64,000 nt of DNA, taken from positions 43,698 to 107,697 of the forward strand of contig CANTFL010000449.1 in the NCBI GenBank assembly GCA_947650285.1, given 5' to 3'. Position 1 is the first letter of the stretch. Each line of letters opens with the position of its first letter. Under the pieces are notes generated by a model. That model had not been told where the DNA came from, searched no databases, and saw only the letters and a list, made by a program, of their open reading frames with translations. The position numbers and the translations under genes are program-made. Origin of the DNA: Hyaloperonospora brassicae (Eukaryota; Oomycota; Peronosporomycetes; Peronosporales; Peronosporaceae). This document shows, piece by piece, positions 12,593 through 64,000 of the stretch.

Positions 12593-12691
12593 ACCAGACT
12601 GGCGTTACCACAAAACGTCAATCGGCTTCTTTCCTCGAAGAGGTCGGTGTGTGTGTGTGCTTAACCTCACGGTTGCTAAACACGAAACACC

Positions 12692-14488: not shown

Positions 14489-14494
14489 CGAACT

Positions 14495-17017: not shown

Positions 17018-17960
17018 CTATGGGACGTATCTGACGGGGGGGCGCTCATCAGCTGCCACTGGGCGTCGGGACTGACGGATCGTAGACCCATTACGGTTTC
17101 TAAAAGTTGGGACAGTAGGGTCCCTGTAGTTGCTAGTTGTCTTAGCACGCTCTATACGAGAGCTCATGTCTTGAGCGACATCTGGTGGAGAGTTATGTAA
17201 CTCGAACACTTCACCCAGTGGATTTACACGTACCAACTTACGTACAGCGTCCGGGCCTAGCCCTAAGCACTCTGGATTCTTGCCATTAATTTCATTACCG
17301 AAATTCAGTGAGGTGCCACCTCGGCCGCCCTCACTCGGTGTAACTTCACGTGCCACCGCACTTACATAATGGATTTTACTTCCTGTATGTCCCGCCCGTA
17401 GACCAACCATGCTTGACGCATGCTGTGACTCATTATCACAACGAGTATCACTCAACCGAGTACATCTCCTTTCAAACACATCAGAAGAGCTCCGCTCAAT
17501 ATTCATTTCATAAGCAATCGAGCGAGTTAGCTCCGACATACCAATGTCCAGCACATTGACATCTTCCGCCAATGACTCGCGCCAATAGTGCTTTTGCTGC
17601 CTAGCAAAGGTAGGTTCATGACTCTCCAAAGATTCGCTAGGAACATTGCGCGTGGCGCCTAAGGTCTTAGACCTCCAATCGATCCATGATTCATGGCGTT
17701 CAAGCCATGCCATGCCTAGGATGAGATCGTATCTCGAATCCAAGTCAAGGACGAGACATCGTTCTGTGCTATCAAAGTCCAAAAACTTCACGCCTAAGTT
17801 CAACGGAACTTTAGGCACAGTAATGCGACTACCCGTTGCTAACCGAACAGTGATGGAATCACCGTCGTGCGCTTTGAGCGCCTCAGCTTATTGCTGACTC
17901 CCCTCAAGGGAACGGCGTCTAGAATAGTTGTATGACGCCCCAGAATCAATTAATATCGAC
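17018..17960 (-). pseudogene. Element 1 pol: aspartic protease and downstream linker
   Basis: Minus-strand reading around 17950-17900 gives LIDSGASYNYSRR with the DSGA active site. A stop at about 17890 interrupts it, then PKVPLNLGVKFLDFDSTERC and LDSRYDLILGMAWL follow, the protease tail (ILGM.WL). The remaining 200 codons or so (17690-17018) are a polar linker before the RT. Confidence 0.75.
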
Positions 17961-18016
17961 CAGTGCTTCTCAAAGCCTTTAACTATCTCCTCGGCGACTA
18001 ACAAGCCAGGCTTGTA

Positions 18017-18337
18017 TCAACGCTCTGTGCTTGCTACCACGGAGCTCTGTGGGGCTAAGCCCTGTGTTGCTCTACCTCGTAGAGAAGTGACAGAACTCAG
18101 TTCTACACCGGTAGGGCGCCCCGCGCCTACTGGTTGTCGACGTTTCCCCGTGTCAAAAAATTTATTTTGGTTGAGGCTTGGGTTTCGACCCATATGAGTC
18201 GGTCGTTGCTTACGCAAAGGACAGGTGGGACGCAAGTGTTTAGTGCTTCCGCATATGTAACAACGTCTCACCTCCTGTCGTTGATCGGCAACATGAAGCA
18301 CAGCTTCATCTTCATCTTCAGCATTGCTGAGATCCAT
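18017..18337 (-). pseudogene. Element 1 gag: CCHC zinc knuckle region
   Basis: The minus frame contains CYICGSTKHLRPTC, which fits the C-X2-C-X4-H-X4-C nucleocapsid knuckle that binds genomic RNA. The rest of gag lies upstream to about 18650, where stops interrupt it. The location directly before the protease fixes the element's orientation. Confidence 0.8.
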
Positions 18338-19202
18338 CTGTTCGGGCTTACAGTAAGCTGAGCTATTTGCTCAGGTTTCCCTCGCATAGCTTGGGCTGTA
18401 CCCATTCCAACCAAGTCTTGCTGACTTCAAATTGTGCTCAGCATTTTGAGCGATGCTAATCGCTTCGGCAAAGTAGAGGAATTGACCCGAAACACTTCGG
18501 TCCTGGCAACGCCATTACGAATACCTTCTATGAAGACAGTCACATAGACTGTCTCAGGGAGAGGGTCAGACTGCATGGCAGCCATCAGAGTTCTCCACTA
18601 TAAAACAAAATCCGTACATTTAATTTTATCCTGACAGGTAAAAAATAAATTTAATTACACGCGGTATGCCTAGTTGGGCGGCGAGGACACTCTCAAAATA
18701 TCTAACTTGAGCGTACCCATGTTGGAAATGCCAAGTCGACATACTTGCCACACGTCAGAGCCCACTATCTAGCTCTTCCATCGAGCTTTAAGATAGCCAG
18801 CGAGACCTGCTGGTGCTTAAGTGAGAAAAGGCCAGAGCTCATATCCATCTCAATCTCACGGATCCAGAGGTTCAGGTTTTCCCCCTCCTTCTTCGAAGTA
18901 ATGTTTAACGTCCACCCGAAGGGGACGAGGATCAGCCTCTTCTGGTGGCATTGCCACGTAGCGTGTCGGCATAGCCGACGCTACTTGGTTTTGAACCTGC
19001 CCTAGAAGGGCCGTTTCATACTGCATGAAGGTCTAGACTCTTGCGTTGAGCACATCGAGACCTTGTGCAGATAGAAACTCCACACACTCTGGGCCTACGG
19101 CCGCGGTGAGCTTCTCAAGCGCGGCCTTTTGGGCCTCAGAGAGGAGTGTGGATTGCTCCATCCTCACAGAGGATCAGTCGTTACCGACTCAGGCGTAGAT
19201 TG

Positions 19203-19220
19203 ACTACAAGTGCTACCAAG
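19203..19220 (-). other. Primer-binding site candidate of element 1
   Basis: Immediately inside the 5' LTR (the right LTR), the minus strand reads TTGGTAGCACTTGTAG one base after the LTR end. Its complement ends in CTACCA, as expected for a tRNA 3' end. I cannot assign the tRNA. Confidence 0.45.
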
Positions 19221-19746
19221 TGTAGCGGAGCTACACAGCTCCTTAAGTCAGATAAAGACTTAATGCTCTTACGAGCAACTTTGGTTCTACGAACCCGACT
19301 CAGAGAGTCAACAGCTCAGAGGGCTAAGGTTTTGGTTCAGAGAACCCGACTCAGAGAGTCAACAAGCTCAGAGAGCTTACGGTCCCCGTTCCTAAGGGAC
19401 CAAACGATTCAAAAGAATCACAGCACAGAGTGCTCAGGAGAAGCTACCTTCACAGGTATTGCTAGCTCCTACCGATCAAAGACGCCTCGTAAGGCACGTG
19501 TCTTTCAGTGATCAAAAGGGGAACTGAATTTTTATTTTTTTATTAAACCTAAAAGAACACCTTAGAACAACGTATTTAACCTGCCCTAAATAACCTCTTA
19601 AAAGATCTCGTAATTAATTGATGATAGACATCAGTCTTCAACAATTGATACACTCACTGTGTTCTAAAATTACTTTATAGGGTACCCCCTCTCTTGTGTG
19701 CACCACACCTATCGTCGACTACCAGCCGACGTGTAACCCCGTTACA
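19221..19746 (-). repeat. Right LTR of element 1 (5' LTR in element orientation)
   Basis: 526 bp, matching the left LTR except for one extra A in a short A run near 19550. It contains the same chain of mini-hairpins. Confidence 0.95.
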
Positions 19747-20506
19747 CTGGCACTCTTCATGACGTATGCTTATCAGCAGCTTGAGAGCGACGGCGTATCC
19801 ACACTGATTATCCAGTCATCCTGTCATTCACGATACAGATATGCCCAACATTAGATCGCAGCTGCATACTGTCATCGTTAGTGGCGACATGCGCGTCGGA
19901 AAAGAATCACAAGACTGTCATGCTGAGCGAAACAGTCTGTCACTTCCCTTTAATTCTTGTCTTGTGAGTTCCTTCTAGATCCTGGCGTTGTCCACTGACC
20001 CCTGTATATCAACAACATAGGTGACGCACTAGAGTGCAAAACCAATACCGTTTACATCTTGTTCTGCCAGAAACTGTGCTCAGTCGCAGGACAGCTCGTC
20101 AACTTTTACATATCGCCCTGAAGTTGCAGAAGAAATGATCAGCTACTTGTCAGAGCCTCAATTTGTATGCCGTAGGCGGATCACGGTCCTACCTTATTCC
20201 GATGGTTTCGTTTACGTAGGTCCGCGTACATTCATAGGAATGCAATTGCGGCTAGAGGTGACACATTGCATGTAAGGCTCGGCTTTATGGGCTCGTTCGC
20301 CTCCTCTTGAAACGGCGAGGACCCGGGCAGGGTCGTGGTTTTCCTATAAGCTTGATTGTGTTCTTTGAGCTTCTCTTCGCGTAGAGCTCGGTGCTATGTA
20401 CCGCTGTCGTTTTGCCATCTGTCAAGACGAGCACAAATCACGACCCAAACATAACTGATTATATGTCTTTGTGTAGTTGGGGATAGACTTGGGGACAGGT
20501 AGTCTT

Positions 20507-46792: not shown

Positions 46793-47509
46793 TAGAGCTA
46801 CTCATCACTCGTATAATGTCTGATGTGTAGAAACCACTTAAGTCCTCTACCATGATGCAAACTTTCTTCTACCATATTCTTCACCCCATTCTGCTGCCTC
46901 GATGCTGCAGAAGTCACGGGTGACAATTTCAAAAAGTCACGTGATATTGTTTGTCGACCACGTCCGAATTCAAAACACTGTGCGCACTCTTGGCCGGATA
47001 GCTGGTCTGACCTGCGCGTCGCTTCGCGCTTCCATCTGCTTTCAGGGATAGAAGCCGGATGGCTACGAGGCCTGTTTCACTTAGGAAGTCCTAGCGTGCC
47101 ATCTTGACGTAATCCATGACCGCAACCGTTTTGACAGAATTGCTCTGCTCTTCCGGCCGATCCCATTTCACAAGCTATTGCAGACGTATACAGGCGTACC
47201 ACGAGACAGAGGTATCGGGACTTAGTGCTTATTATACATAAAATACCGCTACTGGATCTCGACGACATTACGTTCTTAGAAAACTTCACTTTGTGGGAGT
47301 GGTTGTCCCGCGCAGCAAACGAGCCGGCGCGTGTAGAGGCACTTCGTTTAAAAAAATACCGTGGACACGAGGATGTCGACGTCTGTCGGCATTCCCTATA
47401 CCGCGGGATACCGAGAGATTGCGTCCCTTTCGAGTCGCACACTGCGTTTGCCTCCCGCGGCACGCGCCGTGTAATGAGACAAACTCTTCTCAGATAATTG
47501 GTAAGGCCT
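46793..47509. other. Spacer before retroelement 2
   Basis: No confident gene. Overlapping frames on both strands at 47077-47497 (128 and 90 codons) have no recognisable motif. Confidence 0.4.
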
Positions 47510-47931
47510 TGTGTTGATAGAACACAAGGATACGTACTCCCGGCGTCACATTCGTGTAGCGCTAGGAAGCGCTAGTAAGTAAACATAATTCGGAAGCTCT
47601 ATTCAAGGAAAAAGTAGAACTGCATTTGCTATAGTCAAATTTCCTAAAAACCATCTTTGTCTTCATCTAGCTATATTAAAGTACGATTTCCTATGTAAGT
47701 CTCTTTCTCACGACCCATTGTGCGCGCCTAGCAGCGATTGGTGTTGAATTTAATTGATGTAGCTTCTACATCAACCAAGAAGTGGATCACACCAGAATAT
47801 TACCCTTGGTGGTAATATTCCGCCAACATTACCTCTTCTTGAGCAATGTTTATTCAATATTATCTAAATAAATAATATGCAAAAATTGTTACATCCGTAT
47901 CCATTTTATGCAACGGGCTTACCTCGTTACA
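47510..47931 (-). repeat. Left LTR of element 2
   Basis: 422 bp. The 3' part is made of palindromes: TTGATGTAG/CTACATCAA (47754-47774), GAATATTACC/GGTAATATTC (47795-47820) and a terminal TGTAACG-type pair. The right LTR (56053-57518) shares start, order and end. Confidence 0.8.
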
Positions 47932-47950
47932 TCACCTCCCCTTACCATCA
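47932..47950 (-). other. Polypurine tract of element 2
   Basis: The minus strand reads GGTAAGGGGAGGTGA immediately before TGTAACGAGG of the 3' LTR. Element 3 has AAGGGGGGTCA in the same place. Confidence 0.55.
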
Positions 47951-48249
47951 GTCACTTTAGATAGTGATTTGATTGATTGGTAATATAGTGACCACCGTCT
48001 TGTCGCTCTGGGGAAAGGAAGCACTTGTTGATTTTGACGTTCTCACTCCAACTTTCAGCGCTTACGAGTTCGTCTATGCACTGCGCGAGCAAAGCCGCAA
48101 CTGCACGGACGCGTGCAGCCGGAGAGAGATCAAAGAATCGGCAGTAGGCTTTACTTCGCCTTCTGCTGTTGATAAGTAGCCTGCAACACCCGCTGTTGCA
48201 GTTACTCGTGGTCATTCACGTGTAGCTTCTTCATCCGCAGCTTCTGCTG

Positions 48250-49860
48250 CGGGTGGTAGTCCCCCATTGACGTCGAATCCAAAATAGAGGTTGTCTATTT
48301 GGGCGACTCGGACCCCCCGTCCGACTCGGAATCGCCCGAGAAGCCCGGTCGTAAAGCTGTGGGTGCGGGCACAACGACTGTTAAGCCCCGTGGCAGTCTC
48401 GAAAAGGCTCTGCCCCACGATTTGTTTGGATCATCAGACGAGTCCGAGTACTCGTCGCGGGGACCGGACCGATCGCACTCGCATTCATATGATGCGAGTG
48501 AGAAACATGATAACGTCAGTCATCGTGACGATGTGGATGACTCTTCACGGAGTTATCGTAGCCGCAGCAATCCCAGTGATTGCGGCGATCGTAGTGCAAT
48601 TACTTAGGTTGGCAATACGCCAGAAAAGTATGATCGTAACGAGTTAGGATCTGCTTCTGAAAAGATGTCATGGATGTCTTCCAAACGCAATCTGAAGCCG
48701 TTTTATGGTTATAACTCTAAGAGTTATTGGATCCCCCTCTTCGATTCGTCAAGAATTTATAGTCTTGATGTCAGTGCGAGTGAATATCGCGCTGATCATG
48801 AGTATTTCATCGATTGCTTTCCGACATCGATGGTACCACTGCAACCGCAACTGAAACGAAGTTTCTTTGGCGCAGGCGTGGAATTATCCTATCGGCAACA
48901 CTGAAAATGTTGGCCGTGACGCTTGTCTAGACAAACGTATCGCAGCTCTTAATAGAACCAAACAGAAGTATCCAATCAGTGCTCGGTATAACTTGCACCG
49001 ATTGTCTCGAGAGGCAGGTGTACCTTGCCTCTCTGTGCAGAGAATTGTTTTTACAACTCTATTCGCGTCCCTAGGAAGACCTTCCTCCTTGATCGGCACT
49101 TCTGGAGGGCGCTCATATCGTACGAGATGTACCAAGGGATTGAGACTTTTCAATACCTTTACGATCGCGCCGGACGTTCGCTCGACGATGGTATTCCGTT
49201 ATTAAAGGTTGCGTCCAGTCGTAAGATCGATGAGACCGGGAACATACACCTTCAGCTGTGAGCGGGGCTCGTAGCTGTTCCACGAGGGTGGATACCCCCG
49301 CCACTGGACGCGGTAAGTCGGCTTTTAATCCTAAATCGTCACGGTGGTTCAAAATGCGCTCCACAAGGAAGCGTTGACTACCGTGCGAGTCAAACAAAGG
49401 ATGTGGTGAAGGAGGAAAACTCTCCTCCGATTCGTTCGACTCACCATATTGACCAACACGGGATGGATCGAGCAATTTCTGAATCGCGCGAGAATATAAA
49501 GCACGAGAAATACAGGCGCACTGCTCTATACTATGTAATGCGGAAGCACCGCAAGGATCGTGAGGGTGATCGTGCGAAGGATAGTGCTGATTAAGCCTTC
49601 GTACAGCTCCAGGTCGGGCGGTATTTTCGCTCCCTCGTTGACGAGCTGGCGACATCTCGCAAGGAGATCTCTAAGATGATTGGAGAGTTCTCTTTACTGC
49701 GCGAACAGACTGATCGCCGGGAGCGCGAGCGCAAGAACCTCATGGCGATTCTTGAACGTGTAGGGTATTTTCATAGCCCCAGGAATAAGACTCGTACTGA
49801 CAGTAAGGACGGAGACGTCCCACACAAACGTACGATGCGTTCGAATTCTACGCGGCATCT
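48250..49860 (+). pseudogene. Antisense ORF (aORF) of element 2, degraded
   Basis: Plus-strand frames opposite pol. In order: ESKIEVVYLGDSD with an acidic/Ser tract (48265-48607), IPLFDSSRIYSLDVSASEYR (48735-48810), DQHGMDRAISESRENIKHEK with following RKDREGDRA (49450-49590), and QLQVGRYFRSLVDELATSRK with REQTDRRERERKNLMAIL (49600-49770), a coiled coil. Several shifts and stops break it. Element 3 carries the same blocks in the same order, mostly with conservative changes (I/L, D/E, K/R). The part beyond 49100 overlaps the chromodomain and linker of pol on the other strand. Function unknown. Confidence 0.5.
49290..49375 (-). pseudogene. Element 2 pol: chromodomain
   Basis: The minus strand reads RFLVERILNHRDD and, after one frame shift, TYRVQWRGYPPSWNSYEPR. 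This is a chromodomain of the kind attached to chromovirus integrases, where it guides insertion to particular chromatin. Confidence 0.8.
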
Positions 49861-50204
49861 CAATCGTGTATGCGTTACCTTTTCGGCGCAGAACACGAAA
49901 GGGAACGATGTAATAGGGCAGTAGTTTACTTCTGTCCACGTTATTCACTCTATGGATAGCTAGATATGCCGTAGATAATAGGACTTGATCGCATCCAATA
50001 AATTAAAGAACATTTGCTCTTCCATTATTGTCAGCGTTCCTTTTCTGCCGGTTTACCGCGTGAGCAACGAAGACCGGCACGAAACGGACCACGGCTTCTC
50101 GAGCCAGCAGAAATCCGTTTGCTGAAGAGACATTGTTTCGTTCAGTTCGACTTGTGCGAACTGCAGATACAGTCATCTCCTCTTTCTATACATCAGTAAG
50201 TGTT

Positions 50205-51136
50205 TCATCTTCCTAGCTGATATAGTCGTTGGCAATGCTGAAAATACCAGCATCGTAAATTATCATCTAAATTGATGATAGCGTCATCATTGTTATTCGG
50301 ATGATATACTTCTTCGATAACGACCTGATCGACATCGCCATCATACGTGACGACGTTAGCGTCGCACGTGATGAGCAAGAGCCAGAACGGTTTCCGCTCG
50401 AGCGCATCCCTCCCCCTTGTCCAAGAGTCATAATCTAAGAGGGTGGGCAGGCGTGTACGGCGTAAGACATTCACGAAGAACGGTGTATGATAGGTTGTAG
50501 CAGGCACCGAATTATTGATGGCAAATTCCACCATGGGTAGGAAATCGCCCCTACTCGAGAACGAATGGACATATTCTCGAATTAGCTATTTGAGGATATG
50601 GCTTATTCGTTCCATCTGATCATCTATCTCGGAAAGTTTAGATGTTAAAATGTTCGAACTCGTTCCGAGCGATCGGATCAAGGGTAGCCAAACCTCTGAC
50701 GTAAACCCAGGGTCAAGGGAGGGACGAGTTCACGGGGTGGTCCGTGTAGTCGAGATATCGTGTCGATAAAACGCGAGCACAGCCCTGTGTCGTAATAGAA
50801 TCGGGCACTGCAGCAAGATTCACCATCTTGCTGAACCGGTCAACGAACACATGAATACCATTATTCATGTGGCCGTCTCCGAAAAAAGGGAAGACGAAGT
50901 CCATGGACCGGACTGCCACCACCCTGCCGGTACGGCAGAGGCTCTTAACGTGCACGAAATGAAGGACTAGGCTTAACCCGTTGACGAAATTTGAAAGGGC
51001 AAACGTACGTACATGCGCACAAACTGATACTGGCGGGGCCAGTAAAGGTACGACTCATCATACGGTAAGTCTTTTCCCTACCACGATGGCCACCTTTTGG
51101 GGCATCGTGACACTCATGCATGATGCGCAAGCGCAA
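50205..51136 (-). pseudogene. Element 2 pol: integrase
   Basis: Minus frames 51136-50713 and 50534-50205. The zinc-binding part begins RIMHECHDAPKGGHRG, the core shows MDFVFPFFGDGHMN with FVDRFSKMVNLAAVPDS, and the tail VEFAINNSVPATTYHTPFFV corresponds to the same motif in element 1. The DGQTER block near 50600 is lost to shifts. Confidence 0.8.
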
Positions 51137-51524
51137 ATTATTTTAAGCGGGAACGACGACACGAGGAGTGTCGCCATCAACGGCTTTATAATATAGCAAC
51201 ACGTTGCGTGTCGTATACGGACCCAAAGATGAACGGTATATTGCCGACAAATCTTTCGACAATTTACCAGTTGTATTCATTTAATGATCCATTAAGCACA
51301 GAAGATAATTATCTTCTGCGTAGGCCTTTCGTACGTCGTCAAGTAACGTTGAAGACGGAACACTGACCGTAAGTGGCGCAACAGTGAGCTTATCCTCACA
51401 TTTGTATTGCGCTCCCGGCTCGGAATCGGGTCGGCGCGAGAGCGCATTAGCGACGACATTTAGTCGTCCTGGCTTGTATTTGACGGAGAAGTTATACTCC
51501 GCAAAGAAAGCGGCTACAACGCCA

Positions 51525-51821
51525 TTATTTGAGAGAGGTGTGAACGGTTACGGCCGTGCGTAAAGACTCATGTTCCGTGTACACAACGAACGGTCTATCT
51601 CCTATAAGGAAGACGCAAATCTGATCCAGTGCATTATTCATGGCACGGATTTTCTTGTCATACACTGGGTAATTACTCTCATCTGCTTGCGGCTGACGCG
51701 ATTGATAGCAGATGACGCGCTCTGCGCCATCTGTATTAAGTTGCATCAACGCACAGCCGATCGCATAATCGCTGGCATTACAGACCACATGGAATGGTCT
51801 GTCCTGATCTGTACTCGCCAC
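51525..51821 (-). pseudogene. Element 2 pol: RNase H
   Basis: RPFHVVCNASDYAIGCALMQ, then RVICYQSRQPQADESNYPVYDKK. The first catalytic Asp of the CDAS motif has become Asn (CNAS), so the domain is likely inactive even where open. Confidence 0.8.
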
Positions 51822-51881
51822 TATAGACTATTGCATCAAGCTCGACTTGATACCTTCAAAAAAACGATGACAGTCAGCGTT

Positions 51882-52535
51882 TCAGGACCACTTCACAATT
51901 GTATTTAGTAAACAAGAAAGATGACCGGTCATCTCGGCGTGGTTGCGTGAGTACCTGTGCAAGTATGCCACTAGCCCAAGGAACTTGCGAAGTCCCTTGA
52001 CATCGACCGGCGCGGTCATTTCGGAAATCGCCTTGCTGTTTTTGGGATCAGGGCGTACGCCATGTTTACCCACGACACGCCCAAGAAGTGGTATTTCGCT
52101 AGCCGCGAATATACACTTCTTGAGGTTGGCGTACAACTTACGCTTGCGCATAAGTTGAAGAACCTGACGAACGTGTGTTCTGTGAACTTCCACGTCCGTC
52201 TTTCCGCCCATAAACCGGCTATGAACGAACACATCGTCAAAGTAACTCGGTGCAAAATCTCGCACCGGTCTCAATAGATTTTTTACCCATCTGTTGAACG
52301 TGGCAGGGACGTTACTCACCCCCTGTGGAATCACTAGCCACTCCCACAGCATTACGCTGGGGGTGCTTACTGCTGTGTACGTGATGTACCGTTCACGCAT
52401 TAGGATCTGATAGAATCCATCCATCCGATCCATGGACGAGAAAATGGCACTCTGTGACATACCGTCTATGATCAAGTCCATCCTTGGTATGGGTGTCTGA
52501 GCACACAAGATACTATTCGGTTCAAGCGTTGGCAA
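51882..52535 (-). pseudogene. Element 2 pol: reverse transcriptase
   Basis: A 217-codon minus frame: AIFSSMDRMDGFYQILMRER, VIPQGVSNVPATFNRWV, SYFDDVFVHSR (intact YxDD box), LYANLKKCIFAASEIPLLG and VKGLRKFLGLVAYLHRY. The N-terminal palm (before 52535) is lost, so this is a fragment despite the intact catalytic box. Confidence 0.85.
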
Positions 52536-53135
52536 TTAAATTATCTGCAAAGTCAACTTCAGAGGCAAAATTAGATAAAGCTTATAATCGCCTACGATTG
52601 ATCCGTTATTGATCAGGAAGGTTTATGGCTCAGTCACTTCCTAGAAGGTCAAACCCCCAGAATGCTGATGTCTCTCTCCCCCAGCATATACTCGCTTGAA
52701 GAATGTTTTCCTCAAGTACTTTGGATATCTTTTACTCCTATTGTTCTGACGGTGTCAGAGCAGCCGCTGTCAGGTAACGATCATCTACGGTCTACTTCTC
52801 AGTCTACCTAGGACCACCGTGTGGCCGATCAGCGGCAACCGGTCTCTTCTTTCCAAAATGATCCCTTTCCAGCATGCATCCTTGTCCCTGTCCACTCGGC
52901 TTATTCGAGTGGTGGACCCTCGGTGCTGCCTGTAATTCTGTACCGCCGCCGGGAGCTTGCTCCACTGTGTAGTGATCAACTACAAGGAGTTCTTGTGCAG
53001 TCGTGCTAACGAACGTACCGCAAGTGAGCCATCGCACTCACTTGCAGTACATCCACACGTTTGTGGATGCTCCAAGACGTTCATCAGATGGTCATCTGAT
53101 GATCAAACGCCAGGCATCTTCACGGATAGTTGCTT

Positions 53136-53408
53136 TCAGCTCACTCTTGGCTCGTACTTTCTGAGCCAAGGTAATCCCAGGATGGCATCAAATTTGTCAT
53201 CCAGATCTAGTACGATGAAGTCATCATCGTACTGTTCGCCCTCCAACGTGAAGTGGATTTCGACTACACGTTTCTTAACGGTAATCGATGCGCCTTTTTC
53301 AAGGCGCACCGTCATCCTCATTGAAGGAATGCCGCGATCAACGTTCTTGAGCCTACGACCCTTTAGTGACCTTCGACGAAAAATAACTGTTCGATGCCCC
53401 ACAGTCAA
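53136..53408 (-). pseudogene. Element 2 pol: protease C-terminal part
   Basis: The minus frame has VVEIHFTLEGEQYDDDFIVL, then FDAILGLPWLRKYEP, the conserved end of gypsy proteases (ILGLPWL). The DSG active-site part should lie just above 53408 and is interrupted. Confidence 0.75.
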
Positions 53409-56052
53409 CTAGAGTCGAAGTGACAAATCTGTTTTCACTTGCAACTTCATGGTGATGAGCAAAACGCATCACCAAGTGCAGAGACACACAATGATTGTGT
53501 GTCTGGAGCAACTTTCGTCAAAAGTATGCATGTTCTCTTGAGGTTTCTGGATCACTAGAGCACTCCGGCCCTCCTGACCCCGTTCATTTTTGATGGTCCG
53601 CTTAGCTGTTGCGGAGTCGCAACAGCGTTGTACCTACGCCCACTGCCCTGCCCTTTTTGGTAAATGGACGATCATATCGCTCATTCCTGTTTTTACTGGA
53701 AGTGAGACACTATATATATAAATGTAGTGGAGTTGTGAACATTCGTTTCGCGAGACGACCCCCACTTTCCACTGTCGCCTGGACATCTGACTATCGGAGG
53801 GGGTACTCCTATTCCGTGCTCTGTGTTTTTTTCTTGTGTACCCGTCGGTGGGGCGGGTTGTGATCTTCTTGGTGAACTTGAGCTGAGGCTGAACTTGACA
53901 ATTTTAGATATAGGGGTCAATCAGGTGGAAATTCTTCACCAGGTCTAACGTAGAGGCGGATTAAGAATAAATTTCTCACTCGGTCGTGTATATTATCAGG
54001 CGCTCTCCCAAATTTGTCTTTGTACAAGGGTGAGTCTTAATGAGCGAGCCTTCTGACCACTTGAGCTGTCTCGCGTTTTTAAATCGGAACCGAGAGGTTC
54101 ACTGCGTCCGTTCGCAGTTAAAACGGGTGAGAATTGATGTTCCTCTTGGACACAAAAATTCAAGGGTGGAGTTTACGCAGACGCGGGTGACTCTCTGCTG
54201 GAAGGGAAGCCGAAGATCCTGCCCAGGAGAAGTGGACGCGTCTCTTTCGTTGCAAATTCAATTCTGTTTGATGTCAATCAACCAAATCAGAAACCTATGA
54301 CTATACCTATCTGATCGCTAGGTCAAATGTTGTGTGTCGCCTGTCTATGTAATTCACATATCACATCATGTGGTCCACAGAAGATAGTAGGGTAGCGTAC
54401 CGCTTGGCAGTGGATCGCTCGGTAGTGGATCGCACGGTTAGCGGATAGTCCGGGTAGTGGATCGCGGTATGTAATCCGCACTAATTATGTGTTCACTCAA
54501 ATAGGCAGTACACACCTAGATTAGATCGTGATCAATCTTTTGCATCTTTGGTCAGGCGTCTACGGTCGGATCGCTGTCGCTTCCGTAACTTGGCATGCTT
54601 CATAATCTTGGTGATCCATTCCTTTAGCCTGCTTTCACTTTAACCCATCATCCATTGTTTGTCATCGATTTCTTAATCCAGATGTTGATCATCTCTTTAG
54701 TAATCCTGTCCTTGCAGCTTGGCGATCCAATTCCTTAAACGCGGATGTGAGCGGTCAATTGCGATCAGGGACTGCACTCTTTTTTGCCCTTTAGTGAGAT
54801 CAACTTGCATAACTTCAACAATATTTTTCTGCACTCAATATTTTGATCCCATCACTCGCGCCAACGGGTCCATCTCCAAACGCGGTCCACCAATCAGATT
54901 AGTTTCGCACTTAAGGCAGTTCGCGCGAGCCAAATTTTCCATCGTTCTTTCTCCGCAATATGCTACATAAGTGTGGCGTCCTAACTACGTACAGCGATTG
55001 CACTTCTGCAATCGCTTGTTATTTGAAGAGCGATGTCTCTCGCTCTCAACCGTACATATTTCCATTGCTTCTGGACGTCCGCTTTCCTGTCGTCTCGGTG
55101 GACGATAGGCTGTCATAGTAGTTTGAGCCTGTCTCATACTAAATGCTTCCTGTTCCGCCACTGAACTCTCGATTTAGTGGTTCCAATTTAAAACGGAATA
55201 GGTTGGTCTTAACGGGTTGGCCATGTAAACCCTGGATAAAAAATGATTTTCGTGTGTTCATCTATCGAATTTGCAGTTATGTAACTCGAGAGATGTATCC
55301 GATGTGATGCGGGTAAAAGTTCACATCCTGTTTACCTTTTCTGAGTATCAAAAACTCAGCACGAGCCCAGAATTCGGCTTGTGGCGGCTCAAACGTTTGT
55401 CTGGTCCGGGACTTGAATTTTCGACGATCCAATGAATATGGGTCGTGTAGCTCAAGTACTAAAACCCAACCCTTCGCACGTACATCCAAGTTGGACTGGG
55501 CGAATGAAACTGGCATTACGTCGTCCACGATGCGACGGGCTCTTATGGCATCGTCCGACACGACCAATTATCTCAACAAGGAGTCTTTTTCGACTCCTCT
55601 GTACTTTTAGCTGTCCATCTTAAGGGTTTTAAGACGACGCGTGTGTGTCGTCTCACCCACAGCGGCATAGAATAGCTGCTATCTCAACAGGTCTGTCTGT
55701 TGAGTACCGAGTTCTCTCAACTGATCGACCTGTTGATAGCCTTGCTGGTGAAGCAAGGCTACTTTCTGGCGACAAGTTCATTCTGAATGAACCTAACTAT
55801 AGCGCCATGTTGTTGGTCGCTGCCAAGGTACACCAAAATGGCGCTTATGGCGGTATTTTATGGTAAAACTCACTCATTTGACCGCAACCGATTCGATGTC
55901 ACTCAAATAAGTAAAGCCTTGACGCGTTGCGTGACAGCGAACTCTTCATCCAACCCGTTCATGTCACATGAGGGTATAGTGGTCGTTTGACGGACCAATA
56001 AGTGCTACCAGGTGTAACTGGGAACTCTCAAATTAGATACCTAATAAGAACT
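53409..56052 (-). pseudogene. Element 2 gag region, degraded
   Basis: Minus-strand readings such as RPFTKKGQGSGRRYN (around 53680-53630) and FWARAEFLILRKGKQDVNFY (55380-55320) look gag-like, but no continuous frame or clean CCHC knuckle remains. This stretch also has strong hairpins (54993-55016, 55738-55760) and the minisatellite below. Confidence 0.5.
54391..54467 (+). repeat. Short minisatellite, four imperfect copies
   Basis: The motif ggtagtggatcgc recurs about every 16 bases with variants (ggcagtggatcgct, ggtagtggatcgca, ggttagcggatagt, gggtagtggatcgc). Confidence 0.7.
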
Positions 56053-57518
56053 TGTGTTGCCAGTCATCCAAGAGAAGGCTGCGTACTCCCCACGTCACGT
56101 ACACGTAGAGCGAAGAAGCGCGAGGAAATAAACAGAGCTAGGGAAGTTCTGGTTTAGGAAAAGTAGAATTGCATTTAATATAGTTCAGCTTCCTAAAAGC
56201 CATCATTGCCTTAATCTAGGGGGAATAAAAAGCCCCATTTAATCACCACAATTAAAAGAATATCCCACATATTTGGAAAAAATGCGTACAATAATAGGAA
56301 AACAAAAAATGCAGTACGTCCTAGAAAACCCACGTTAATGTGGCACACATATAATCGCACGTACTCAATCATTTTCGTTTATCATATTTCAGCCGCGACC
56401 AACCCCTCCTGTTTGAATAGACGTGGAGAGGGTTCTCCCGCAGGCGTGCTGCGCTTGCAGCCACCAGTTGCAGGCGCAGACGCGAGATATGAGGACGTAA
56501 ACGCGTCTTCGTATCATAGGTCGCGGCCGTAAACACAGTCAGTCGGTGCTAATGTTGTTGATATAAATGTTATTGCTTTTGTTATTTATCTTTCAGTTGC
56601 TATTGTCGATGATGCTACTGCTGTTTCTTCTGCTGGTATTGTTCATGTTGTTGCGGTTGCTGTTGTTTGTGCTCTGTTAATTATGCTACTCATGTTTCTG
56701 CTGCTACTGCTTTTGCTCTCGATGCCGCGGTTGATTTTGTTGCTCTGTTGATGCTGCTACTGCTGCTTTTTTTCTGCGAGATGTAGTGTATGGGGTCGCT
56801 TGCACGAACTCCAGCAACACGCGCGTGTTGGTGCTCAATGACGGATAGTGTACGTATGCGTTTGTGTATGGCTACAAAAAGACGAGTGTGGTGCGGCTCT
56901 ACCGAGATGCGTTCAAGACTAAGGACACGGTATAATATAACGATGGGATACAAGCAACTTGCATTCTCAATTGCCAGCACCTATTGTAAGGGGTTATAGT
57001 TGAAAGCCTCGTGCTCATTCAAATTGCGGTAAGAACCATCATAACCAGAACCACAACTTGTATCGATGTGCTGCGCTTAAGTTAAGTGAAGAGTGGCTGC
57101 ATCATGATTCTGCTTTCGTGTACCACGTTACTTAATTTTTTTAGAACGTGGGTTTTTACATTTTCGTGATTATGTGGGGCAGTTTCTGTTTTTTCAATTA
57201 TCTGGGGGCATTTTTATAATTTTCGTGCTTAAATTTGGCATTTTATTTTTTCCCCTTCATGAACTATACTTAACTACAACCGTCTATAAAAGTCTCTTGC
57301 TCAGTTATTGAGAGCATCTAGCAGCTATTCGTGTTAAAGTTTATTGAAGTAGCTTTTACATCAACCAATAAGTGTAGCACACAAGAATATTACCCTAGGG
57401 GGTAATATTTCACCAACATTACCTCTTCTCGAGTGATTTTGTTCTAATATTATCTATATAGTAGTGCAAAATTTGATACATCCGTATCCATTCAATGAAA
57501 CGGGCTTACCCCGTTACA
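56053..57518 (-). repeat. Right LTR of element 2 with an internal insertion
   Basis: It begins TGTGTTGCC like the left LTR and shares cttcctaaaarccatc. Homology breaks near 56220, resumes near 57265 (gtctcttgctcag) and ends with the hairpin GAATATTACC/GGTAATATTT and CCCCGTTACA. The extra 1 kb or so holds a trinucleotide-rich tract (56545-56775) and nothing else I recognise. Confidence 0.7.
56545..56775 (+). repeat. Degenerate trinucleotide (TGY/GTT) tract
   Basis: Over 200 bases of imperfect tgctactgctg/gttgctgttg type triplets, plausibly an eroded microsatellite. Confidence 0.7.
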
Positions 57519-58701: not shown

Positions 58702-59096
58702 TGTAACGGGGCACACCCTTGCGTGAACTTAACGCAAGGGTATCGTGCCCCGACAAGCGTACACGGAGGGGCAAACGAGGAAGCGTAGATAAGGTAAAAG
58801 CAGAACTGTTATATTAATAAATTAAGTCTTTTAACTACTGTCTCCTTGTTTAACCTGACTTAATTATGTTAATCTAACTGAGTGTATGGTGACGTCTCGC
58901 CACCAATCATTGTGCGCGTCCTGCGGCGATTGGTGGGTTGATATCGTCAAGATATCAACCAATGAGCAGACACTTTGGTCGCTTCACCAATATCACCACT
59001 ATCGGTGATATTGTTCAAAGAATATTCAACATAATATTCTTTTATTGTCATTCTTTATTTAAAGTGACAATTCCATGTAACGGGCTGCCCCGTTGC
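58702..59096 (-). repeat. Left LTR of element 3
   Basis: 395 bp, TGTAACGGGG to CCCCGTTGCA. It is nearly all palindromes: a nested pair GGGGCAC/GTGCCCC around ACCCTTGCGT/ACGCAAGGGT at 58709-58752, GGTTGATATC/GATATCAACC (58936-58960), AATATCACC/GGTGATATT (58989-59012), AGAATATT/AATATTCT (59019-59040) and TTGTCA/TGACAA (59045-59070). Confidence 0.88.
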
Positions 59097-59264
59097 ATGA
59101 CCCCCCTTGACTGATAGTCACTGGGTGACTATCGAAAATATGGCGGCCACTCATTGGTCACCATTGGGACAGGGAGCACTTGTTGGGTCAGTTCCGTTCA
59201 TAACTCAACCTGACCTCGCATAGTTAGCATGTCTATGCGGGGGTGACGTCAAGGCACATAGAGC

Positions 59265-60810
59265 GTGCCTGTGCCAGCTCTGCGGGAAAAAAAAAAAAAA
59301 GAGGCAGACGATTCGTCGTCTGCTGCTTGTTCTTCGCCTGCAGCAAGAGGTGCTGCAGGTGCACGCGGTACAGCACCGCGTGCGCATGATGACCCCGACA
59401 TTGAGGTCATCTACTCTGGCGAGTCAGACGTGTCTGACTCGGGCAATGCTGAAAAGGCGTCTCGCTCACCGGCGACGCCTCAGTGTTCGCCAAGGCCACT
59501 GCCGAACGAACGGACTCGTGAGTTGCAACACAGTCTGTTCGGCAGTGGTTATGTACTCTATGGTGAGGAATACTATGCCTCCCAGTATCAACTAGTGCTT
59601 CCCCGCAAGAGCGTGATGACGATGGCAAGAGCCGTCGTCATTCTGAAAGCCGTGGTACCGAAACAGGTACCACTTTGAAGCGTGGTGAGCTCAAGCCGTG
59701 GTGTTTGCCCGAACGGCTCATCAATGGCTTGTCTCACGAGACAAGCCGACATCATCGAATTCCATTATTCGATGCATCGTAGCTCCACGGCTTGACTCCC
59801 AGCGCGAGCAACTTTCGCGCTGACAGAGGACTTTTATCTAGATGTCTTCCTTGGACATCGATGGTACAACAGCAACCAAAAGCGTGACAAGAACTCGCTT
59901 TTGGCTGCTTGAACGCGTTCGTCCAAAACGTAAAGAATTTTGGACGAGAAGGGTGGCTCAAGAAACTTGAGGCGACACGCCTCAGGTTCGAAAGCGAACG
60001 CCAACCGGCGCCAGATACCGGTTGCACTTTTTGTAGAATGATGCAGACATTCCTTGCCTCACATGGGGAGACCCTTGTGCTTAGTTGTGTTGACAACTCG
60101 CAGCGTGTACATAGAGACGTGTATTCTCTAAGTTCGCCCTGGGGAAGGGCACACATCTCGGAGGAGATGCGTGACGCGATTGCAAACTTGCAATCCGTCT
60201 ACAAGCTCCAGGTGTTTCGCGTGTTTACCGATGGGCCCGAGGACTCATCGGATGAGTCTCGTCATCTGGCGGACGAGACCTTCAACGTCCATCAACAGCT
60301 GAGAGCGGGGCTCCCAGCTGTTCCAAGAAGAAGTGGATACCCCCGCCACTGGACGAGGTAGCTCGTCCTCGATCCTGAATCGTCACGGTGGTTCAAGATA
60401 CGCTCCACTAGGAAGCGTTGATCACCGTGAGCATCCACCAAAGGATGTGGTGGAGGAGGAAAGACCTCCCTCCAGATGATTCGGCTCACCATCTCGACCC
60501 TTACGGGATGGATCGCGCAATCAATGAATTGCGCGATAACTTGAAGCACGAGCGCGACCGGCGCTACGCTTTGACTGATACCGTGCGGAAGAACCGCAAG
60601 GATCGCGAGGCCGATCGGGCGACAGACTGCGCCGTTGCGCCACAGCGCAGCTTCAGGTCGAGCGGTATGTCCGCTCCCTATTCGATGAGCTGGCGACAGC
60701 TCGCGGGGGATATCTCGCGTTGAGTTCCGAGGTATCATATTCTGCGCGACCAGACGGATCGTCTGGAGCGCGAACGCAAGAACGTGATGGATGTTCTTGA
60801 ACGTGGGGCT
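59265..60810 (+). pseudogene. Antisense ORF (aORF) of element 3, degraded
   Basis: Plus-strand frames in the same order as element 2: a Lys/Ala/Ser-rich start after an A14 run, DDPDIEVIYSGESDVSDSG (near 59390-59450), IPLFDAS with SASNFRADRG (59760-59830), ERQPAPDTGCTFCRMM and a mixed helical part (59997-60360), DPYGMDRAINELRDNLKHER with RKNRKDREADRA (60500-60625), and RDQTDRLERERKNVMDVL (60740-60795). It overlaps the pol linker and chromodomain on the minus strand from about 60290. No known family; the C-terminal half is a predicted coiled coil. Confidence 0.5.
60345..60440 (-). pseudogene. Element 3 pol: chromodomain
   Basis: The minus frame reads DQRFLVERILNHRDDSG, then TSYLVQWRGYP, and after a shift SSWNSWEPRSQL: a near-complete chromodomain with the aromatic cage region intact except for the shift. 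Confidence 0.82.
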
Positions 60811-61382
60811 ATCTTCATCGGAAGAAGAAGGCTTGTACTGACAGTACGGTCTGTGTCGCCCCACGTAAAACGTATGATGCGTGCGCATCTTACGTGGCAA
60901 TTAGATCGTGTATGCATTTCCCTTGCGATGCAACACTCCAGAGGAAATGGCCTAATGTACTTCGGCAATAGTTTACTACTGCCGCCATCTAGTGACTGCA
61001 TGTCCAGGTAAGTTTACCGTAGACAGTAGTACTAGGTCGTTAACTTTAAATGAAAGAACATTTTCTCTTCCATTCTTGTCTGCGTTCCGTTTCTGGCGTT
61101 TCACCGTGTTTTCGATGGAGTCCTGAACAAAACGGACTTTTACCGCCTCTCGAGTCAGCAGGAAGTTCTCTGCTGACTCGTTCTTTGGTCTTTCAGTGCG
61201 CTTTGTGTACACTGCTAAGAGATTGTTCTCTTCTTCAGCGAGGTTGTCTTCTTCCTCGCTGGAATAATCGTTGGCGATGCTGAATATCCCAGCATCGTCA
61301 TCGTATCTGAGTCAGTAGCAGCGTCATCGCTACTACTAAAGCTCGATTTCTTCATCGATGTTGACGTTGGTCGACATCGGCA

Positions 61383-62163
61383 TCAAGCAATATATCGGCG
61401 TGAGCGGTGGATACATCGATGAGCAAACCAAAACGCTTTTTGCTCGAGCGAGTCCCTCCCCCTTAACCCAGAGTCCCTCTGTTTGAGGGCGGTAATACGT
61501 AGGTGGCGTAAATCATTCACGTAGAACAGTGTATGCCGTTGTAGACGCATGAACGGAGTTGTTGATGGCAAACTCAACCATCGGCGAACTCACTACAATG
61601 TGAAAAAAGTGGAATAATGTCACGAAAAATTCCTTCGAGGACACCGTTCGCCCGTTCAGTCTGACCATCCGTTTCGAGGTATGGTCAGAAGTAAGGCCCA
61701 TCTTCAATCGAAATCCAAGAGAACGGAAAACGGTTTGCCAAAAACGCCGCCGTGAACCGAGGGTCACGGTCAATTCTGGTTGAAGGGTGCACCGTAGAAT
61801 CGAAACACAGTGTCGATGAACACGCGCACGACCGTGCACGTTGATCGATTCAGGGACTCCAGAAAGATGTACCATCTTGCTGAAACGATCAACGAACACA
61901 AGAAAACTCTGTGTTCTTGTCAGTGCCGCCGGGATAACCGAAGACGAAGTCCATTGAAACGGACTGTCACACTCTGCCGGGACCGGTAGAGGCTGTAATG
62001 GTGCACGGGATGATGGACTGGGCTTCACCCGTTGAACAAACCTCGCAAGCAAGTATGTACTTGCGTACAAACTGATACTGGCGGGGTTAGTAAAAGTCAC
62101 GGCCTTACCGTGAGTGAATGCTTTCTCTCCCACGATGGCCACCTGTCTAGGGCATCGTGACAC
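61383..62163 (-). pseudogene. Element 3 pol: integrase, broken
   Basis: The minus frames include FLVFVDRFSKMVHLSGVPES and VEFAINNSVHAST, corresponding to the same blocks in element 2. The zinc-binding part and DGQTER block are in other frames (RLNGRTVSSKEF is a shifted trace). Confidence 0.75.
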
Positions 62164-62388
62164 TCATAAATGATGTGTGATCGCAAATCATTATGAGTGG
62201 GGACGACGACACGGGCGTGTCGCCGTCAACGGCTGTATAATATAACAGTACGTTACGCGTAGTGTACCGATCCGATGAGGATCGGTACAAAGCCGGGAAA
62301 TTCTTCAATGATTTTCTGGATGGATGCAACAGATGATCCATTAATCGCAAAGGATACTTATCTTCTGCGTAGGCCTTGCGCCCCCTCT

Positions 62389-62974
62389 TCAGGTAACGCT
62401 TCCGACGACGGAACACTGGCTGTCAGTTATCGCAACAGTGGGCTTTATCCTCAATGTTGAATTGTGCTGACCGGCTCGAAATCGGGCCGGTGCGAAAGCG
62501 GGTTCAGCGACGACGTTTAGTCGTCCTGGTTTATACTCCACGGAGAAGTTGTACTCCGCGAAGAAAGACAGCCACCTCGCCATTCTCTGCGAGAGGTGTG
62601 GGATGTTTACTGCCGGGCGTAGTGACGCATGGTCTGTATAGACGATGAACGGTCCTATCTTCCAAGAGATAGACCCGAAACTTAGCCAGTGCGTATTTCT
62701 TTGGCAAGGAGTTCCTTGTCATCCACTGGGAAGTTGCCGTTCAGCTGGTTTGGAGCTGACGCGACTGATAACAGATGACACACTAAGCGCCGTATGTGTC
62801 GTATTTCATCAACGCACAGCCGATAGCAAAGTCGCTGGCGTCACAGACCACGTGAAACGGTCTGTCCTGGTAGGCAATCGCCAAGATGGGCGATTGCATC
62901 AAGCCTTTCTTGATGCTTTCAAAGGAGCGCTGGCAGTCAGCGCTACATGACCACTTCATATCTTTCTTGAGCAA
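62389..62974 (-). pseudogene. Element 3 pol: RNase H, broken
   Basis: RSFESIKKGLMQSPILAIAYQ, then RPFHVVCDASDFAIGCALM (with intact CDAS), then in other frames KYALAKFRVYLLEDRTVH and FFAEYNFSVEYKPGRLNVVAE. These are the expected blocks in the expected order. Confidence 0.78.
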
Positions 62975-63074
62975 AGGAAAGATGAACAGTCATTTCGACG
63001 TAATTGCGCGAGTACTTGTGCAAGTACGCCGCTGTGTTCGATGAACTTACGAAGTCCCTTGACATCGACCGGCA

Positions 63075-63732
63075 CTATTGAGTCGGTGATCGCCTTGATT
63101 TTCTCGGTATCGGGAGCGTACGCGTGTTTACCCACGATGCACCCAAAAAGTGGTATTTCGCTTGCCGCGAATATACACGCTTCTTGAGGTTAACATACAA
63201 CTTGTGCTTTCGCATGAGTTGAAGGAACCTGACGAACGTGAGTTCTGTGAACTTCAATGTCCGTCTTTCCGTCCATAACCGGGCTATGGACAGACACATC
63301 GATCGAAGTAACTCCGTGCCGAAGTCTCGCAACTTGGTCTCAACAGATTTGCCAACACATCTGTTGAAAGTTCTAGGGGCATTACTCAGCCCCTGTGGCA
63401 TCCTGCGCCACTTCCATAACATACCGCTGGGGGTGCTCACTGCCGTGTACGGAACATCCCGTTCACGCATGAGGATCTGATAGAATCCATCCATCAGATC
63501 CATGGACGAAAAATTGTTACTCTTTGACACTGCATCTATGATTACGTCGCTTTCTTGGTATCTGCGTCTGAGCCGGTGCCGTTGCAGCACTCAACTTGTT
63601 GAACGCGTGCACTATCCGCCATCCTCCTGTGACCTTTCGCGCACAGAAGGGACGGAGGCTGTGAGGGGATGTTGATTCCCTCACATTTGCCCCTGCTAAG
63701 CGATCGGCAAAGAACTTGTCGATTGCTATCAC
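63075..63732 (-). pseudogene. Element 3 pol: reverse transcriptase, broken
   Basis: Minus frames include CARKVTGGWRIVHAFNKLSA (63732-63517), FSSMDLMDGFYQILMRERD, MPQGLSNAPRTFNRCV and LYVNLKK. The catalytic box is disrupted by a shift (ELLRSMCLSIA where YFDDVFVHS is expected). N-terminal RT continues toward the window end. Confidence 0.8.
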
Positions 63733-64000
63733 TTGTTCACGAGGCAGTGGCCACTGCTTCGCGACACAGTACTTCGAGCCCGGTTTAAGTTAAGATCTCG
63801 TGTCAATTGCCTTAGTCCTTGACAGCTCGCACGGCGGATTCGGTGAACACATCCTTGAATTCGATCAAATCCTCATACAAAGGATTTGCCTGAAGTGACT
63901 CCCAGGATTGAGACGTGTATCAGCCAATCCGAGTCTTCACATCGATGACAGTTTCGTCCATCGATGAACTGCTGAGAACCCTCTCGGTCTCAGTAAACAC

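What the first reader, a model, noticed from the sequence alone, without database searches (positions are those of the whole stretch)
58702..64000. Retroelement built as a continuous string of perfect mini-hairpins
Nearly every few tens of bases in element 3, coding and non-coding alike, there is a perfect short inverted repeat with a small loop. Examples (arm / arm): GCAGACGA/TCGTCTGC 59304-59323; CTGCAGCA/TGCTGCAG 59338-59358; CACGCGGT/ACCGCGTG 59362-59382; GCTTGTCTC/GAGACAAGC 59727-59746; CATCGAAT/ATTCGATG 59753-59774; CGTCCAAAA/TTTTGGACG 59920-59946; GATTGCAA/TTGCAATC 60178-60195; GACTCATC/GATGAGTC 60242-60258; ATCGCGCAAT/ATTGCGCGAT 60512-60537; CGAGTCAGCAG/CTGCTGACTCG 61151-61180; GTACCGATCC/GGATCGGTAC 62264-62288; GCAATCGCC/GGCGATTGC 62874-62897. 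By a simple count, perfect stems of 8 or more with loops of 1-9 nt should occur about 0.2 times in 1.6 kb of random sequence; I read at least nine between 59.2 and 60.8 kb. The effector array and recA do not look like this. Possible causes: selection for a folded genomic RNA, or reverse-transcriptase template switching that converts imperfect palindromes to perfect ones. I know of no described precedent.
Basis: partly seen in the sequence, partly recalled or inferred. Interest (0 to 1): 0.9.

Follow-up and report, generated by a model that had tools for sequence, protein, structure and literature searches.

The report
Retrotransposon folded into perfect mini-hairpins
A jumping gene in this genome, including its protein-coding parts, is written as an almost unbroken string of short perfect hairpins that seem to be kept as it multiplies, which suggests that the shape of its single strands matters to how it copies itself.

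Summary
All 12 hairpins are exact. Element 3 is a decayed copy: 14 full-length main-clade relatives have 110-143 perfect stems of 7 bp or more per 8 kb, where shuffling one of them gives 5.4. Pol has 65 stems of 8 bp or more against 1.05 after codon shuffling. Folding exceeds shuffles by 48%; the highest genome mean in the passages I saw of a coronavirus paper is 23.4% (PMC7642675).

Of the stretches sampled, four of four Ty3/gypsy families show it and none of three other retroelements. Pairing is Watson-Crick on both strands: persistent G-T and A-C mismatches are 15:14. Stems stop gaining length near 10, 8 or 5 bp by family. Shared, transmitted substitutions avoid stems.

Most likely selection keeps both single-stranded intermediates (genomic RNA and cDNA) folded, while template switching at hairpins, seen as loop inversions, supplies or repairs stems. 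Function is inferred. A purely mutational origin stays a serious rival: synonymous sites alone give no selection signal, and a defective copy with fewer hairpins has near-identical LTRs.

The parts
58702..64000 (-). Element 3: 3' two thirds of an about 8-kb Ty3/gypsy LTR retrotransposon (sense = minus strand), cut off by the contig end, decayed copy; 52 perfect stems >=7 (loops 3-15)
   Evidence: BLAST of genomic copies; hairpin counts; contig ends at the window end
58702..59097 (-). 3' LTR of element 3
   Evidence: The same stretch matches both ends of relatives at about 8-kb spacing
60292..60900 (-). Open frame with the start of a chromodomain (end of pol)
   Evidence: Pfam Chromo E 1.1e-06
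63075..63590 (-). Remnant reverse-transcriptase frame
   Evidence: Pfam RVT_1 E 2e-12
59304..59323 (.). Perfect hairpin, 8-bp stem; hairpin holding this arm in 13 of 15 full-length copies
59338..59358 (.). Perfect hairpin, 8-bp stem; 14 of 15 copies
59362..59382 (.). Perfect hairpin, 8-bp stem; 14 of 15 copies
59727..59746 (.). Perfect hairpin, 9-bp stem; 10 of 15 copies; exact loop inversion in one relative (L022)
59753..59774 (.). Perfect hairpin, 8-bp stem; 14 of 15 copies
59920..59946 (.). Perfect hairpin, 9-bp stem; 13 of 15 copies
60178..60195 (.). Perfect hairpin, 8-bp stem; 14 of 15 copies
60242..60258 (.). Perfect hairpin, 8-bp stem; 3 of 15 copies
60512..60537 (.). Perfect hairpin, 10-bp stem; 15 of 15 copies
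61151..61180 (.). Perfect hairpin, 11-bp stem; 4 of 15 copies (whole 11-nt arm required, stem >=10)
62264..62288 (.). Perfect hairpin, 10-bp stem; 3 of 15 copies (whole 10-nt arm required, stem >=9)
62874..62897 (.). Perfect hairpin, 9-bp stem; 12 of 15 copies
47469..57518 (-). Element 2: related old copy (73% to element 3 over 3.3 kb); 3' LTR about 47469-47931, 5' LTR about 56012-57518 split by an about 1-kb insert; 47 stems >=7 (loops 0-15) against about 7 in 47600-57520
12059..19747 (-). Element 1: Ty3/gypsy-type element with LTRs 99.8% identical (12059-12584, 19221-19747); same architecture with 5-bp stems (142 stems of 5 against 54.5 shuffled)

Best explanation
Element 3 is a decayed copy of an about 8-kb Ty3/gypsy retrotransposon family whose whole sequence (LTRs, gag, pol, 3' region) is encoded as consecutive, local, perfect Watson-Crick hairpins of about 8-10 bp with mostly 3-10-nt loops (shown). 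The hairpins are older than the copies, and older or defective copies tend to have fewer (shown, with exceptions). They persist in the lineage that transposes (supported). Because G-T and A-C mismatches are equally frequent and both strands fold equally, what is kept is complementarity readable on both strands (shown). My inference: a retroelement makes two long single strands of opposite sense, genomic RNA and first-strand cDNA, inside a particle (antisense RNA may also matter). Selection keeps both folded as strings of short independent stems. This would compact them for packaging, stop long-range tangling and sense-antisense annealing, and hide the RNA from small-RNA silencing, with stems too short to be processed as long double-stranded RNA. 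Template switching within hairpins, seen as loop inversions, supplies or repairs stems.
For: Density is alike in coding and non-coding parts: 17-22 stems >=7 per kb. Codon shuffling of pol leaves 1.05 of 65 stems >=8. Fold excess is 48% sense and 51% antisense. Of 151 folded domains in one copy, 117 are single hairpins, and 127 of 150 gaps between domains are 0-3 nt. Shared variants among 14 copies are depleted in stems in all four regions, while single-copy variants are not depleted in the three non-coding regions. LTR changes carried in both LTRs of a copy: 18 of 1,884 stem sites against 142 of 3,558 others. Among stem columns, 39 of 91 shared variants pair Watson-Crick against 10 of 260 single-copy ones. 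Persistent G-T 15 and A-C 14. Four of four Ty3/gypsy families sampled have it; 0 of 3 other retroelement stretches do. In ten comparisons between families at 63-65% nucleotide identity, 0.31-0.47 of stem pairs are paired at the same codons (shifted controls 0.20-0.28), no more than the about 0.56 that identity alone would give (my arithmetic), so families carry different stems at similar density.
Against: No function was tested. At synonymous third positions in pol, shared and single-copy variants are both about 1.8-fold lower in stems, so their ratio gives no selection signal there. Within-copy LTR differences are also lower in stems (46 of 1,884 against 169 of 3,558), so lower mutability or LTR exchange is not excluded. 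L010, with LTRs 98.2% identical, has only 88 stems >=7 and broken frames: a hairpin-poorer lineage seems to have spread, perhaps with help in trans or by segmental duplication. Within-copy LTR changes in stems lean to G-T over A-C (18:6).
Confidence: 0.42

Rival explanations
1. Mutational drive: reverse-transcriptase (or host polymerase) template switching at hairpins repeatedly copies one arm onto the other, making and perfecting stems without selection for folding.
For: Perfect pairing without G-U tolerance and strand symmetry are what arm copying gives. Four exact two-base loop inversions against 0.22 expected (about 0.6 after allowing for higher loop diversity, my arithmetic) plus one-base ones at two further loops against 0.33. 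Four pairs with a double change in a single copy, three of them in L026. Known mechanism in DNA replication (PMC8794818; outline, abstract and passages seen). Both variant classes lower in stems at synonymous sites.
Against: Of 621 clusters of neighbouring differences, 65 involve a perfect stem >=8: 4 in both versions, 61 in one; of the 60 listed, the examined copy lacks the stem in 52 and its nearest relative in 8 (not polarised). Direction-blind copying should leave about as many covarying pairs as restorations, but only 15 pairs vary between Watson-Crick states while about 119 shared-variant columns are missing from stems (my arithmetic). Coding density is close to non-coding density although most copying events would change protein. 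Stems stop gaining length at a family-specific limit.
Confidence: 0.3
2. Genome-scale ordered RNA structure of the classical kind: selection on the sense RNA only.
For: Extreme folding of the sense strand, stem turnover between families as in coronaviruses (PMC7642675).
Against: Antisense folds as well. A-C mismatches persist as often as G-T (14 to 15); shared stem variants 17 G-T to 12 A-C in 14 copies (p 0.46) and 40 to 40 in 18 copies, a set that includes shared decay.
Confidence: 0.15
3. A host process acting on resident double-stranded DNA (cruciforms, chromatin or repair) makes hairpins in inserted elements.
For: Strand symmetry; lower within-copy LTR difference in stems.
Against: The five main-clade copies with LTRs 98.5-100% identical have 141-143 stems >=7, the nine others 110-143, the opposite of build-up after insertion; the copia, non-LTR-like and non-element stretches sampled in the same genome lack them.
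Confidence: 0.08
4. Chance, composition or codon-usage artefact.
For: None found.
Against: Dinucleotide and codon shuffles; 46-94 stems >=7 in each of 18 aligned copies.
Confidence: 0.01

Closest known systems
Genome-scale ordered RNA structure (GORS) of positive-strand RNA viruses, e.g. coronaviruses (PMC7642675, passages seen)
   Same: Hundreds of consecutive local stem-loops over the genome; positions poorly conserved between relatives
   Different: Here an LTR retrotransposon; mean fold excess 48% against 23.4% as the highest genome mean in the passages; equal on both strands; perfect Watson-Crick stems with family-specific length limits
Template-switch mutations that create and maintain hairpins (PMC8794818, outline, abstract and passages seen)
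   Same: Perfect stems, compensatory changes, loop inversions
   Different: There single events traced in RNA genes; here a whole 8-kb element at about one perfect stem per 56 nt, with few candidate one-step stem gains in the recent copies
Encapsidated RNA of satellite tobacco mosaic virus: 30 helices of 9 bp (PMC3551766, passages seen)
   Same: String of about 9-bp local stem-loops proposed for a packaged genome
   Different: No capsid contact known here; element is 8 kb and reverse-transcribing
Ty3/gypsy LTR retrotransposons with chromodomain
   Same: LTRs, gag, protease, RT, RNase H, integrase order and chromodomain start
   Different: Hairpin architecture; I recall no described member with it (recall, not a search result)

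Membership tests
Ty3/gypsy LTR retrotransposon | Paired LTRs flanking gag and pol | tested here: met
   LTRs of about 390-400 bp at about 8-kb spacing; Retrotrans_gag E 4.1e-16 and Ty3_capsid E 6.5e-09 in L013
Ty3/gypsy LTR retrotransposon | Protease - RT - RNase H - integrase order | tested here: met
   RVP_2 86-188, RVT_1 540-705, RT_RNaseH 794-899, H2C2 1017-1074, rve 1093-1186 in L013
GORS | Genome-wide folding energy excess over shuffles | tested here: met
   Mean 48.2% over 22 fragments of L013, lowest 28.5%
GORS | Stem positions poorly conserved between relatives | tested here: met
   0.31-0.47 paired at homologous codons in other families at 63-65% identity, no more than identity gives (arithmetic mine)
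GORS | Positive-strand RNA virus genome | tested here: not met
   Element is an LTR retrotransposon
GORS | Selection on the sense RNA (G-U tolerated) | tested here: not met
   G-T 15, A-C 14 persistent; antisense equally foldable. That this is a defining feature is my reasoning, not from the paper
Template-switch-made hairpins | Loop inversions at perfect stems | tested here: met
   4 exact two-base inversions against 0.22 expected; small numbers
Template-switch-made hairpins | Stem made or mended in one multi-base event | tested here: inconclusive
   Stem present in the examined copy only in 8 of 60 listed one-sided clusters (not polarised); four single-copy double changes
Packaging-signal string (STMV-like) | Stems contact capsid protein | not testable with these tools
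   needs structure of particles

The most novel reading that the evidence does not exclude
A replicon whose protein genes are written in a second, structural code: selection on both RNA and cDNA strands keeps the whole genome as independent mini-stems, with a stem length fixed by each family's own particle or reverse transcriptase (about 5, 8 or 10 bp), re-encoded independently in different families.
Probability: 0.3. Interest if true: 0.95.

Novelty: new variant of a known kind. Interest (0 to 1): 0.86.

Why it matters
If selected, it is the most extreme genome-wide folding I know of, in a group where the paper listings I got showed no whole-genome folding, and it says that the cDNA strand's shape matters as well as the RNA's. 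If mutational, reverse transcription can write palindromes over a whole genome without breaking its proteins. The many copies in one genome, plus families with different stem limits, make both readings directly testable.

Tried and rejected
Chance, composition and codon usage: rejected by shuffles. Post-insertion host process as the main cause: disfavoured. Sense-RNA-only folding: disfavoured by mismatch equality. One-step arm copying in recent history: searched, few candidates. First LTR-pair tests: one search used a mask that depended on each copy (stem 56 of 1,876, other 179 of 3,513) and one search used a wrong offset (only 307 of 392 positions matched); one search replaces both. Clade comparison of L009-L011 with the rest (old unpaired/young Watson-Crick 91 columns, reverse 13, both Watson-Crick 16) was not used as a selection test because those three copies may share segmentally duplicated decay. 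Relatives in viral contigs: none confirmed. Hairpins in flanks of 15 copies: 66 against 20 in 28,959 bases; 38 of the 66 lie in flanks of L014, L015, L023 and L027 that hold pieces of family LTRs, so flanks are not a clean control. The host genome was not scanned as a whole; the comparison of families rests on one 1.5-1.8-kb stretch each for L037-L041, and L038 and L041 are 70% identical to each other.
Full report
Observation. Over the 64-kb window, perfect stems of 8 or more with loops of 1-9 number 54 against 7.35 (s.d. 2.3) in 20 dinucleotide-shuffled versions; 24 of them lie in 58-64 kb, where about 0.3 are expected, and none in 0-12 kb. Between 59.2 and 60.8 kb there are 13. The excess in element 3 lies at loops of 0-15 nt (56 against about 5 for stems of 7 or more); loops of 16-100 nt give 29 against about 25, and direct repeats 9 against 4.3 at short spacers and 25 against 26 at long ones. 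Elements 1 and 2 also have more direct repeats than shuffles (18 against 5.1; 15 against 7.2 at spacers 0-15; also at longer ones). In the 18 aligned copies loops of 16-28 nt hold 8-17 stems of 7 or more (no shuffle run).

What the element is. The window lies in a 100.6-Mb assembly and ends where its contig ends. A search with 58702-62000 gave 45 matches, with only 40 of 3,625 candidates scored. I fetched 20 copies, the window's own included (L009-L028). Two were dropped from alignments (L021 truncated, L017 interrupted), 18 were aligned over 5.3 kb, and 15 have both LTRs in the stretch held. The element is about 8.0 kb with LTRs of about 390-400 bp. The copy L013 has open frames matching Retrotrans_gag, Ty3_capsid, retroviral protease, RT, RNase H, zinc-binding integrase and rve in Ty3/gypsy order. 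A frame in the window starts a chromodomain. Sense is the minus strand of the window.

The relatives are denser than the window copy. In 5.3 kb element 3 has 52 stems of 7 or more (loops 3-15); the two other members of its clade have 58 and 46; the other 15 have 65-94. Over full length, the 14 main-clade copies have 110-143 and L010 has 88. In L013 the count is 143 against 5.4 shuffled, about one per 56 nt, covering 31% of bases with arms. Density is alike in the 5' LTR, gag, pol, 3' region and 3' LTR (17.9, 17.6, 16.6, 22.3, 17.8 per kb). In pol, stems of 8 or more number 65 against 1.05 in 20 codon shuffles. Homologous sites in L010 and element 2 show many partly broken versions of the same stems. 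The hairpins are therefore older than the copies, and element 3 shows what is left after decay. Three of the four lowest full-length counts (L010, L026, L018) are in copies with LTRs 97.2-98.2% identical, so decay since insertion is not the whole story.

Folding. In 200-nt windows L013 folds at -85.3 kcal/mol (mean z -6.8); its antisense gives -83.8 (z -6.6); the window at 28-36 kb gives -40.8 (z -0.4). With base-pair span limited to 150 nt, 117 of 151 top-level domains are single hairpins, and 127 of the 150 gaps between domains are 0-3 nt. By the GORS measure (350-nt fragments) the excess is 48.2% sense and 50.9% antisense, lowest sense fragment 28.5% (22 fragments, 10 shuffles each); L010 has 33.6%. 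The passages I saw give about 15% for SARS-CoV-2, 7.5-10.7% for hepatitis C virus and 23.4% as the highest genome mean (PMC7642675).

Pairing rule. If only the sense RNA mattered, a stem could keep G-U but not A-C. In L013, mismatches inside otherwise perfect stems number 15 G-T and 15 A-C; of these, 15 and 14 are held by at least 10 of 14 copies. Among shared stem variants the figures are 17 and 12, among single-copy ones 59 and 65. One exception: within-copy LTR changes give 18 and 6. On the whole the rule is Watson-Crick and blind to strand.

Stem length. In L013 the chance that a stem extends by one more pair is 0.81, 0.66 and 0.56 at 7, 8 and 9 bp, then 0.21 at 10, about chance level; other copies give 0.32 (L025), 0.19 (L010) and 0 of 6 (element 2) at 10. 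The element-1 family falls to 0.19-0.24 at 5 bp and L038 to 0.20 at 8 bp. L041 has three stems each of 8 and 9 and none longer. The limits are clear for the first two families and tentative for L038 and L041, which are small samples.

Which elements. All four Ty3/gypsy families sampled show an excess: elements 2/3, element 1, L038 and L041 (L041 placed by its RNase H domains). The copia stretch L037 and the two RT stretches without integrase or RNase H matches (L039, L040; non-LTR-like, my label) do not: 4, 3 and 3 stems of 6 or more against 4.4, 4.4 and 5.1; L040 has a mild fold z of -1.57. L037-L041 are one stretch of 1.5-1.8 kb each, and L038 and L041 are 70% identical. Between families at 63-65% identity, 0.31-0.47 of stem pairs are paired at the same codons, against 0.20-0.28 for shifted controls (ten comparisons); L038 and L041 give 0.58 and 0.67. 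Identity of 64% alone would give about 0.56 (my arithmetic), so the stems themselves are not conserved beyond sequence although the density is high in each.

Maintenance. Among 14 main-clade copies, variants shared by two or more copies are rarer in stems than elsewhere: non-coding 45 of 778 sites against 200 of 1,311; coding 46 of 1,828 against 204 of 4,061. Sliding the stem mask along each region gave as few or fewer shared variants in a fraction 0, 0, 0.004 and 0 of shifts (5' LTR, gag+pol, 3' region, 3' LTR), while single-copy variants were not low in the three non-coding regions (fractions 0.89, 0.40, 0.997) but were low in gag+pol (0.002). In LTRs, changes present in both LTRs of a copy, hence mostly older than its insertion, hit 18 of 1,884 stem sites against 142 of 3,558 others; differences between a copy's own LTRs hit 46 against 169 (odds ratio 0.47, p 0.012). 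So older, transmitted changes avoid stems more than recent ones, but recent ones avoid them too. At synonymous third positions shared and single-copy variants are both lower in stems and their ratio is not. I read this as good evidence that stems persist in the transposing lineage, and as incomplete evidence that selection does it.

Template switching. Exact reverse-complement loop alleles with two differences occur at 4 loops against 0.22 expected (about 0.6 after scaling to loop diversity, my arithmetic), and one-base ones at two more distinct loops against 0.33. Such inversions are described as a template-switch footprint (PMC8794818; passages). But among 621 clusters of neighbouring differences, 65 involve a perfect stem of 8 or more (4 in both versions, 61 in one); of the 60 listed, the examined copy lacks the stem in 52 and its nearest relative in 8 (not polarised). 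Only 15 pairs among about 1,300 vary between Watson-Crick states. Arm copying probably happens, but looks too rare in the recent tree to explain by itself how stems are kept.

Mechanism. I commit, at 0.42, to selection on both single strands made during the cycle (genomic RNA and cDNA) for a compact, untangled, shielded state made of short independent stems, with template switching as a source and repair of stems. Shown: the architecture, its age, its restriction to Ty3/gypsy families among the stretches sampled, its strand symmetry. Inferred: the particle, cDNA and silencing roles. A related image is the encapsidated RNA of satellite tobacco mosaic virus, 30 helices of 9 bp (PMC3551766; passages). 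Host silencing pressure is plausible if this is an oomycete: in Phytophthora infestans 84% of assignable small-RNA loci overlap retrotransposons (PMC3804510; passages).

Novelty. Precedents exist for the parts (GORS; hairpin-making template switching), but the listings I saw showed none for an LTR retrotransposon. Searches answered: (63 and 66 with no paper). Searches timed out, so absence from print is weakly tested. I rate it a new variant of a known kind.

Noticed in passing
L014 8192-9900: Five LTR copies in tandem at about 414-bp spacing at the 5' end of the element, the last cut by the locus end.
   Followed up: no
window 56220-57254: About 1-kb insert splitting the 5' LTR of element 2, with about 10 bp of overlap in the matches at its edges; few hairpins in it.
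   Followed up: partly
window 38900-40339 (+): One open frame with a protein kinase part followed by cyclin N and C domains (kinase-cyclin fusion).
   Followed up: no
window 1-12058 and 19747-22040: Large direct duplications (94-99% identical) carrying repeated 180-182-aa frames in 1-12 kb.
   Followed up: no
G000:C493 and C113: The element-2 stretch recurs at 100% (C493) and 96% (C493, C113), suggesting segmental duplications or separately assembled haplotypes.
   Followed up: no
L013 7826-8188 (+): A 121-aa open frame after pol, among the four longest frames listed in 4 of 15 copies, no Pfam match.
   Followed up: no
L010: Copy with LTRs 98.2% identical but broken frames and 88 instead of up to 143 stems: a defective lineage that seems to have spread.
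   Followed up: partly
L013 stems: 5' arms are richer in purines than 3' arms (677 to 571 pairs, overlapping stems counted more than once).
   Followed up: no
L013 pol: The stem register that pairs third with third codon positions is the rarest (16 of 80 stems >=7), but not in codon shuffles (301 of 1,000 stems >=6).
   Followed up: no
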